From Siniperca chuatsi (Eukaryota > Chordata > Actinopteri > Centrarchiformes > Sinipercidae), in assembly GCF_020085105.1 (NCBI RefSeq), contig NC_058051.1, forward strand, positions 22,813,955-22,877,954: a stretch of 64,000 nucleotides of DNA. Direction: 5' to 3'. The translations under genes and the position numbers were made by a program. Shown piece after piece: positions 45,701 through 48,700 of the stretch (position 1 is its first letter; the number at the start of each line of letters is the position of its first letter). The notes beneath the pieces are model-generated. The model ran no database searches. It was given only the letters and a program-made list of their open reading frames with translations, and was not told the DNA's origin.

Positions 45701-48700
45701 CTAGTTTGCAGAAACTGTCCTTATCCTGAGTCATCACCTTCCTCCTATAGGGAGAGCGAGGTAACACCGGTCCTGCTGGCGCCCCTGGAGCTCCTGGTGC
45801 CCCTGGTGCCCCTGGACCTGTCGGACCCCTCGGCAAGCAGGGAGACAGAGGAGAGAGTGTAAGTAACACAACACCCAAAAACACATTTTTGATGTTAACA
45901 CGAGGAAGCACCCACATTGTTGTTTCTTTCTTTAGGGTGCTCAAGGACCTGCAGGACCCTCTGGACCCGCTGGCGCTAGAGGAATGGCTGTGAGTATCAT
46001 CATCTCTAACTGCAACAATATCATTATCAGTTTTTTTAGATTTTAATTTGATTCAGGTAATTAAATTAAAGTAAAAAGTGCTACAGATATGCAGCCATGC
46101 ATTTTAATACACATTAAAACTTTACTCCAGGGACCCCAAGGACCACGTGGAGATAAGGGAGAGGCTGGTGAGACTGGAGAGAGGGGACAGAAGGGTCACC
46201 GTGGATTCACTGGTCTGCAGGGTCTTCCTGGACCTCCTGTAAGTAATGCAAATCTAATAGTTTATCCCTGCAGTACCACTTTTCATCTTACTTCCCTTCA
46301 TCCATCTGTTCTACCATCTAATCGGTTATTGTCCTTTTCCTGACAGGGTCCCGCTGGAGATGCTGGAGCCTCCGGACCTGCAGGACCAAGCGGAGCTAAG
46401 GTGAGAAAACTGAGCAAAAGCAAAGAGCGAAAGAGAAGAAAAACTCTTATTCCATCCTGCAGCTTTAACACCCAAGATATGTGATGGTAATGAAGGGCAC
46501 AGGTTAGTCTTTTTGTAATTCTCCAATCACCTGACGAAGACGGGGACAGGAAAGGCCACGTTCTTTAATTACCCACTGCTGTGATAAGATGGGCAGCTGA
46601 GGCATTTTGTAATTACTCTCTGCAAGGAAAAGAGGCAGACAGACAGGGGGGACCATGATTTGTGAAACCACTCCTGCTGAGATCGGAAATGGACTTCAAT
46701 ATCTGTTCTAGATTAGCTAAGCACTGTGCATGATAAGGAAAATGAAGGGAAATGTCACCATACAAATAATCTTCATGCATAATAAGGTAAAGGGGTCTGG
46801 AAGTGATTGAGGTAATAGAGAGGAACTGCTGCTGCATTTGAATTGCTTTTTCAGATTTTTCTTTCTTATCCAGACTGCATGATGGATCAAAAAAAAAAAT
46901 ATATAGCTCTACACTTTGAATAGAAAGCACAAGTTCAGTAAATGAAGAAATGTTTCTATTTACAAAGACATGTTAGCATCCACTGGCTTTTACTTTAACA
47001 CTCACTGTTTCTGTAGGGACCAGCTGGACCAGCTGGACCTGCTGGCAAAGATGGATCAAATGGACAGCCTGGTCCCATTGGACCCCCCGGACCTCGTGGA
47101 CGTTCTGGAGAAACCGGTCCTGCTGTACGTAACATGTCCTTAAAATAAAACAAGTCGATATACTGTACTTTTTCAACGCTGTCTTGCAACACCTGATTGT
47201 ACATGCCCCGCTGATCCATTTCCTGCTTTCGCCCTCCTTCAGGGTCCTCCTGGTAACGCTGGACCCCCTGGCCCTCCTGGTCCTCCTGGCCCTGGCATCG
47301 ACATGTCTGCCTTCGCCGGTCTGGGCCAGACTGAGAAGTCCCCTGATCCTCTCAGGTACATGAGGGCTGATGAGGCCTCCAGCTCCCTGAGGCAGCACGA
47401 CGTGGAGGTTGATTCCACACTCAAGTCCCTCAACAACCAGATTGAGAACCTGCGCAGCCCTGACGGCTCCCAGAAGAACCCTGCTCGCACCTGCAGAGAC
47501 CTGAAACTGTGCCACCCTGAGTGGAAGAGCGGTAAGTAGGGAGAGGGTGGTCGAAAATGATAAAGAAAGCTAATTATTAACAGTTCTCTTTGAGATATTT
47601 CTTTCTAAAACACCTAAAAATGCTCATATTACGCCCTGGGTTGAAAAAGAGCTACTTCTAATCTTACTTTTTCTGTGACAAAAATGTTTACAACCAATTT
47701 AGCATCAGCTAACTGCTCACTGCTTTCAGTTTCAGATCGCAGAGGCAGCTTTACTAATGGTGAACTGGATATTCTGATTTATTTTGTTCAGTGATACTGA
47801 AATAAGGAACACTGTGAGAAAGAGACAGAATCAGACAGACAGCCTGCTTTAATGGCTGTCTGCTAGTTTAATGGCCTATCTTGGGTATGTAAAAGTTGTC
47901 TTGCCTGAATAAGGGCATACCGAAGGTCATTTTTCTTGGTACCAAGGACAGGAGGCAGAAAACCTTCATAAAGTTTCTGGACCATGACAGGAACAAGATC
48001 AGCTTTTTTTAATCTTTAAAAAAAAATAAAATACAGCAAAAATCATATACCTTGATGTCCATACCTGACCTAGAAATACTAATACAAGCTTTTTAGGCCT
48101 GGTCTCCCCCCAAAACGGGCAGGTACAACTTGCCAATTAGTTTATCAGGATTCACTTCTTATTCACCTACTTTTCTCATCTCTCCAGGTGACTACTGGGT
48201 TGATCCCAACATTGGCAGCACAGCCGATGCCATCAAGGTCTTCTGTAACATGGAGACTGGAGAGACCTGCGTCTACCCAAGCATCGCCAAGGTACCACAG
48301 AAGAACTGGTGGACCAGCAAGAGCAAGGACCGCAAACACATCTGGTTCGGCGAGACCATGAACGGAGGATTCCACGTGAGTGCACTTTTAGAATACAACG
48401 CTTAAAATAATTTCTTTGTCTATAAACTGATCATGAAGAGACTTGACAAGAAAGCTGCTAATGAATTCCCTGACCTGTCTTCTGGTCGTACAGTTCAGCT
48501 ACGCTCAGGACGGTCCTGCTGCCAACGCTGCCAGCGTCCAGCTGACCTTCTTGAGGCTTCTGTCCACTGAAGCATCCCAGAACCTCACTTACCACTGCAA
48601 GAACAGCGTTGCCTACATGGACCAGGCCACAGGCAATCTGAAGAAGGCTTTGCTGCTGCAAGGCTCCAACGATGTGGAGATCCGCGCAGAAGGCAACAGT

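What the first reader, a model, noticed from the sequence alone, without database searches (positions are those of the whole stretch)
48188..48375. Type II procollagen C-propeptide has lost the Cys1306 that forms the inter-chain disulfide
Exon 52 reads [15 protein letters not shown] where human COL2A1 has DPNQGC; codon AGC (Ser) stands at 1306. The other seven cysteines are present. In fibrillar C-propeptides Cys2 and Cys3 (1289 and 1306 here) bond between chains and Cys1-Cys4 within a chain. In a homotrimer every chain lacks the partner, so Cys1289 would be unpaired and the trimer would be held non-covalently until the helix folds. Pro-alpha2(I) lacks Cys2, but it is rescued by alpha1(I) partners; a homotrimer has no such rescue.
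Basis: partly seen in the sequence, partly recalled or inferred. Interest (0 to 1): 0.72.

Follow-up and report, generated by a model that had tools for sequence, protein, structure and literature searches.

The report
Fish cartilage collagen lacking a linking cysteine
What looks like a working fish gene for cartilage collagen has lost the cysteine that lets three identical chains be locked together, which suggests that this chain either pairs with a partner chain or assembles without the usual chemical lock.

Summary
Window 47243-48991 (+) encodes a type II procollagen C-propeptide. Codon 48217-48219 is AGC (Ser) where fibrillar collagens have Cys3 (Cys64 in C-propeptide numbering). The other seven cysteines remain, and I found no alternative Cys-bearing exon in the window. 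The part read looks functional: 42 of 42 helix exons have AG/GT splice sites and, with the next exon, give 338 unbroken triplets without cysteine. Nearby, Gln62, which holds the chloride ion on the trimer axis of COL1A1, is Ile. Published work (the 'cysteine code') reports that chains lacking Cys2 or Cys3 run as monomers alone, and that partners with both can rescue them. Zebrafish alpha3(I), a duplicate of col1a1, lost the same Cys to Ser, and teleosts have two col2a1 genes. I think this is one col2a1 duplicate that became a heterotrimer chain (about 0.42). Non-covalent homotrimer assembly is the main rival (0.36). I could not decide between col2a1a and col2a1b, nor look for the other copy, because the genome search did not complete. 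One sequence only was available.

The parts
31303..47124 (+). 42 Gly-X-Y exons of the major triple helix (with the helix part of the next exon, 338 triplets)
   Evidence: 42 of 42 units have AG acceptor and GT donor; 1014 aa, no Cys, no break; units of fewer than 4 triplets were not looked for
26553..26897 (+). ORF holding the N-propeptide VWC domain exon
   Evidence: PF00093 VWC, E 3.9e-16
47243..47531 (+). exon with end of helix, C-telopeptide, YMRA/DEA (C-proteinase site by recall) and start of C-propeptide with C1 and C2
47492..47494 (+). codon of C1 (Cys41), intact
   Evidence: read
47510..47512 (+). codon of C2 (Cys47), intact, the would-be inter-chain partner
   Evidence: read
48188..48375 (+). 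exon 52
48211..48213 (+). codon 62: ATT Ile in place of the Gln that coordinates the axial chloride in COL1A1
   Evidence: role of Gln62 from PMC5353611
48217..48219 (+). codon 64: AGC Ser in place of C3 (Cys64)
48494..48736 (+). exon 53: chain-recognition sequence, NLT sequon, further intra-chain cysteines
48845..48991 (+). last coding exon, ends VCFL stop

Best explanation
This is one of the two teleost col2a1 duplicates, intact in the parts read and probably functional. Its C-propeptide has lost C3, and its axial chloride ligand Gln62. Such a chain can still meet others through the calcium-bound base and coiled coil, but three copies cannot be disulfide-locked by C2-C3. I propose that it works as a heterotrimer chain: its C2 is captured by the C3 of a neighbouring chain that has both cysteines, as for alpha2(V) and fish alpha3(I), which lack C3 too. 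Candidate partners are the other col2a1 duplicate, type XI chains, or col1a1a in fin actinotrichia. Shown: the open frame and splice sites, the Ser and Ile codons, the kept cysteines. Inferred: that the genome is a teleost's, that the gene is expressed, that a second col2a1 exists in it, the partner, the heterotrimer.
For: 338 unbroken triplets, 42 of 42 splice pairs, COLFI domain E 6.8e-120. C3 is Ser and C2 is kept. In the cysteine-code paper all human fibrillar C-propeptides lacking C2 or C3 ran as monomers alone; changing C2 or C3 to Ser in homotrimerising chains abolished the linked homotrimer; rescue by a full partner was shown for types I and III (PMC6181919). Zebrafish alpha3(I) has the same Cys to Ser loss, and six changes in its recognition sequence against three in alpha1(I) (PMC4753508); trout and zebrafish three-chain type I and human type V fit the code. 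Here the recognition sequence has 7 of 15 changes against 41 of 221 elsewhere versus recalled human COL2A1 (Fisher p 0.016). Gln62 and Arg39 of all three chains hold a chloride in the COL1A1 homotrimer; Gln62 is lost here. Two col2a1 genes in sunfish, zebrafish and medaka; a pcbp2-to-col2a1 block on two ohnologous fish chromosomes.
Against: No partner gene was seen: the genome search did not complete (13 requests). No expression or protein data. Inter-chain disulfides are called neither necessary nor sufficient for helix formation, and C2 was not required in semi-intact cells. Either or both cysteines are absent in some other fibrillar chains, some invertebrate, and C3 is changed in a lamprey col3a1 (named); their trimers are not described there. 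Recognition sequences vary between species, I have no fish baseline, and the human reference was recalled. Only one sequence of this gene was examined, so conservation of the Ser is unknown.
Confidence: 0.42

Rival explanations
1. The chain still makes homotrimers, held only by calcium-dependent contacts and the coiled coil until the helix folds. The disulfide is dispensable in this fish and was lost by drift.
For: Alpha2(I), which lacks C2, and C2-to-Ser alpha1(I) form transient non-covalent homotrimers in calcium (PMC6181919 discussion). A 2026 paper calls inter-chain disulfides neither necessary nor sufficient for helix formation. C2 was not required in semi-intact cells, and some invertebrate chains lack both cysteines. 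A lamprey col3a1 also has C3 changed. Asp59, Asn61 and Asp67 are kept; Asp67 binds calcium, the other two by recall.
Against: Gln62 of the axial chloride site is lost too, which should weaken a homotrimer axis further (the effect is inference). The chains lacking C2 or C3 that the code paper expressed alone did not form linked homotrimers.
Confidence: 0.36
2. A decaying duplicate under relaxed selection, on the way to loss of function.
For: Duplicates often decay (general knowledge); 48 of 236 C-propeptide residues differ from recalled human COL2A1.
Against: No stop, frameshift or broken splice site in the helix exons and C-propeptide; the sequon and seven cysteines are kept. The signal peptide, the rest of the N-propeptide and the promoter were not examined.
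Confidence: 0.12
3. Assembly error or a rare allele at one base.
For: TGC to AGC is one base; no reads were available.
Against: Codon 62 nearby needs three changes, so an isolated miscall is an unlikely account of the local pattern.
Confidence: 0.06
4. Type II in this fish is locked by a cysteine elsewhere, or an alternative exon 52 restores C3.
For: Alternative splicing within a C-propeptide is in the title of a zebrafish pro-alpha1(V) paper, seen only in a reference list.
Against: tblastn of two exon 52 versions against the window finds 48187-48375 at E 3e-45 and 2e-29; the next best is a 27-residue, 33% match at 59632-59552 on the other strand (E 0.007), outside the gene. No cysteine in the helix exons, seven in the C-propeptide.
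Confidence: 0.04

Closest known systems
Teleost pro-alpha3(I) (col1a1b), zebrafish
   Same: Duplicate of a homotrimer-capable gene; C3 replaced by Ser; diverged chain-recognition sequence (PMC4753508, passages)
   Different: Type I, with alpha1(I) and alpha2(I) partners, and its peptides were identified in tissue; partner of the window chain unknown
Human pro-alpha2(V) (COL5A2)
   Same: Lacks C3, and type V forms one-to-one-to-one heterotrimers
   Different: Different type; keeps Gln at position 62 (recalled)
Human pro-alpha2(I)
   Same: Heterotrimer chain missing one of the two inter-chain cysteines
   Different: Lacks C2, not C3
Human pro-alpha1(II) (COL2A1)
   Same: Same gene family: telopeptide, helix with 881 of 1014 residues identical to the recalled human sequence
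   Different: Human chain has C2 and C3 (recalled). The code paper says that all homotrimer chains with both run as linked homotrimers; the passages I read do not name type II

Membership tests
Type II fibrillar procollagen (col2a1) | Fibrillar C-terminal domain | tested here: met
   PF01410, 399 bits
Type II fibrillar procollagen (col2a1) | Uninterrupted helix of about 338 triplets | tested here: met
   338 triplets in the exons read; a first triplet in the exon before may add to it
Type II fibrillar procollagen (col2a1) | Closer to type II than to types I and III | tested here: met
   C-propeptide 188 of 236 to recalled COL2A1, 171 of 236 to COL1A1, 160 of 234 to COL3A1; the type II sequence was recalled
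Type II fibrillar procollagen (col2a1) | VWC domain in the N-propeptide | tested here: met
   PF00093
Disulfide-locked homotrimer chain (cysteine code) | Both C2 and C3 present | tested here: not met
   C3 is Ser
Heterotrimer-only chain (cysteine code) | Exactly one of C2 and C3 missing, other six cysteines present | tested here: met
Heterotrimer-only chain (cysteine code) | Monomer when expressed alone, rescued by a partner | not testable with these tools
   needs expression and non-reducing gels
Heterotrimer-only chain (cysteine code) | Partner with both cysteines in the same genome | not tested
   genome search unanswered, 13 requests
Teleost col2a1b rather than col2a1a | Sequence closer to col2a1b | tested here: inconclusive
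   medaka primers 6 mismatches of 40 for a, 5 of 40 for b; zebrafish a 5 of 22 and no plausible site for its second primer, b 3 of 19 and 4 of 20

The most novel reading that the evidence does not exclude
After the teleost genome duplication, col1a1b and one col2a1 copy both lost C3 to Ser, in parallel, and both became heterotrimer chains. Fish type II collagen would then be partly a heterotrimer. In fin actinotrichia, where zebrafish express col1a1a and col2a1b but not col1a1b or col1a2, a mixed type I/II molecule could form (the authors of that work infer alpha1(I) homotrimers there).
Probability: 0.25. Interest if true: 0.75.

Novelty: new variant of a known kind. Interest (0 to 1): 0.5.

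Why it matters
Type II collagen is the text-book homotrimer, and the cysteine code says that linked homotrimers need C2 and C3. A type II chain without C3 is a natural test. Either fish make type II heterotrimers, or a fibrillar homotrimer assembles without the lock. Both answers can be read on a gel.

Tried and rejected
Related loci: an exon 52 profile against genome contigs and viral contigs gave 53 and 47 pattern matches, none confirmed; plasmids by tblastn, none. These collections are of bacteria, archaea, viruses and plasmids, so this says nothing about fish.

Own genome for the paralogue: 13 identical requests unanswered.

col2a1a or col2a1b by published qPCR primers and by neighbours: not decided. 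The ayu paper places a pcbp2-to-col2a1 block on both ohnologous chromosomes; medaka primer mismatches are near equal, and zebrafish primers lean slightly to b.

Printed fish sequences: a search for six peptide strings found 0 papers. A prior report of C3 loss in a type II chain: I saw none in the listings (20 of 61 shown; 9 of 9; 25 of 75; 4 of 4; 3 of 3; 5 of 5; 20 of 37,740; 40 of 58; 15 of 70), all titles and abstract starts from an open-access library. This is no proof that none exists. A hoki cartilage collagen paper (PMC6521242) was seen only in a listing, because I had by then used the 15 papers allowed.

Alternative exon 52: rejected within the window. Structure prediction was not run: the spliced domain is not contiguous in the window. 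RNA families and tRNAs: none found. One ORF beside the aladin exon gave no meaningful PDB match.

Errors of mine: one search used exon borders one base off, and one search used a wrong start for the last exon, which garbled its end; identities in the report are only. From I use only residue calls and the sequon, which lie before that exon.

Full report
What is there. The + strand of the window carries a col2a1 gene that is intact in the parts I read. A VWC domain lies in the ORF at 26553-26897. Between 31303 and 47124 there are 42 Gly-X-Y exons, all 42 with AG acceptors and GT donors. With the helix part of the next exon they give 1014 residues, 338 triplets, without a break and without cysteine. 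The recalled human helix has one triplet more at its start, which here may sit in the exon before. The Exposito review gives about 338 triplets as the prototype (PMC2852846, passages). The C-telopeptide [30 protein letters not shown] and the C-propeptide follow in exons 47243-47531, 48188-48375, 48494-48736 and 48845-48991, ending in VCFL and a stop. Pfam gives COLFI with 399 bits. The signal peptide and the remaining N-terminal exons were not assembled.

Type. The helix is identical to human COL2A1, as I recall that sequence, at 881 of 1014 positions. The C-propeptide is identical at 188 of 236 to recalled COL2A1, 171 of 236 to COL1A1 (5k31) and 160 of 234 to COL3A1 (4ae2). It is type II.

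The cysteine. At 48217-48219 the codon is AGC, Ser. COL1A1 and COL3A1 have Cys there. In C-propeptide numbering this is Cys64, C3; in the COL1A1 structure it bonds with Cys47 of another chain (PMC5353611, passages). The window chain keeps 41, 47, 73, 81, 151, 196 and 243. A search of the window for another exon 52 found none; the next best match is 27 residues at E 0.007 outside the gene.

A second change. Position 62 is Ile (ATT, 48211-48213). In the COL1A1 homotrimer Gln62 and Arg39 of all three chains hold a chloride ion at the centre. Arg39 and Arg42 are kept, as are Asp59, Asn61 and Asp67; Asp67 takes part in calcium binding. From Gln codons, Ile ATT needs three changes. The linking and axial-ion residues have both gone, while the calcium side is kept. 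Chance of hitting both 62 and 64 with seven changes in the 47-residue base is 0.02, and 0.04 over the whole domain; a cluster of three changes in five residues is common by chance (0.38). The count is therefore weak evidence by itself.

Chain-recognition sequence. Against recalled human COL2A1, 7 of 15 residues differ, and 41 of 221 elsewhere (Fisher p 0.016). This suits a change of partner, but recognition sequences are variable and I had no fish baseline. Asp129, which pairs with Arg42 in the COL1A1 homotrimer, aligns with Ala here, but this stretch differs between collagen types anyway.

What is known. The cysteine-code paper (PMC6181919; abstract, sections 6, 7, 10, 11 and the first part of 12) reports that human fibrillar C-propeptides lacking C2 or C3 run as monomers when expressed alone, that putting the cysteine back gives linked homotrimers, and that turning C2 or C3 to Ser in homotrimer chains removes the link. 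A one-to-one-to-one trimer should have one full chain, one without C2 and one without C3; trout and zebrafish type I and human type V fit. Zebrafish alpha3(I), from col1a1b, has Ser for this same cysteine and a more diverged recognition sequence (PMC4753508, passages). A lamprey paper says that residue three is modified only in mammalian col5a2, which I read as meaning among jawed vertebrates, and in lamprey in colA1, colA2 and colA4, which it names col1a2 alpha, col1a2 beta and col3a1 beta; the lamprey col2a1 genes (colA3, colA5) are not on that list (PMC8887668, section 5 and passages). That statement does not fit zebrafish alpha3(I), nor this window.

Against a strict code: either or both of C2 and C3 can be absent in fibrillar collagens, some invertebrate chains lack both, and C2 was not needed in semi-intact cells (PMC2852846); a 2026 simulation paper calls the inter-chain bond neither necessary nor sufficient for helix formation (PMC13351861, passages); chains lacking C2 form transient trimers in calcium.

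Fish setting. That the window is from a teleost is inference, from the gene order and the compact gene; no call tested the species. Neighbours are a SPRY protein (2321-2941, +; spryd4 by recall), a glutaminase exon whose best PDB match is the liver isoform by a narrow margin (125.9 against 124.0 bits for the kidney isoform), an aladin exon (55061-55285) and, by recall only, map3k12 (62221-62715; no Pfam match). The ayu paper describes a pcbp2-to-col2a1 block on two ohnologous chromosomes in medaka, pike and ayu, and its legend lists map3k12 and aaas (PMC8389408, passages). Sunfish, zebrafish and medaka have col2a1a and col2a1b. In zebrafish fin folds col1a1a is expressed but col1a1b and col1a2 are not, and col2a1b contributes to actinotrichia; the authors infer alpha1(I) homotrimers there (PMC4753508). 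If the window gene were col2a1b, and if zebrafish col2a1b shared its Ser, the code would permit two alpha1(I) chains with one alpha1(II)b chain. That step is speculation, and the a or b identity is undecided.

Mechanism. Most likely (0.42) this chain meets others by the calcium-bound base and coiled coil, and is then locked only when its C2 finds a C3 on a partner with both cysteines. The main rival (0.36) is a homotrimer without the covalent lock. Pseudogene, sequence error and a substitute cysteine are less likely.

Limits. One sequence, no orthologues, no paralogue, no reads, no expression, and a human type II reference from memory. The genome search for the window's own assembly was asked 13 times and never answered.

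Noticed in passing
48211-48213: Gln62, ligand of the axial chloride in the COL1A1 C-propeptide trimer, is Ile here.
   Followed up: yes
35414-36034 (-): ORF that looks like the end of a LINE reverse transcriptase (by eye) inside a col2a1 intron; Pfam ALKBH8_N, E 2.2e-11.
   Followed up: partly
20254-20431: Perfect ATCT tetranucleotide array, 44.5 copies, upstream of col2a1.
   Followed up: no
60403-60429: Perfect CAG array, 9 copies, between the aladin exon and the map3k12-like exon.
   Followed up: no
2321-2941, 5824-6285, 55061-55285, 62221-62715: Neighbours: SPRY protein, glutaminase, aladin, and a map3k12-like first exon (by recall).
   Followed up: partly
literature, PMC8887668: Its statement that residue three is modified only in mammalian col5a2, apart from cyclostome genes, disagrees with zebrafish alpha3(I) in PMC4753508 and with this window.
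   Followed up: partly
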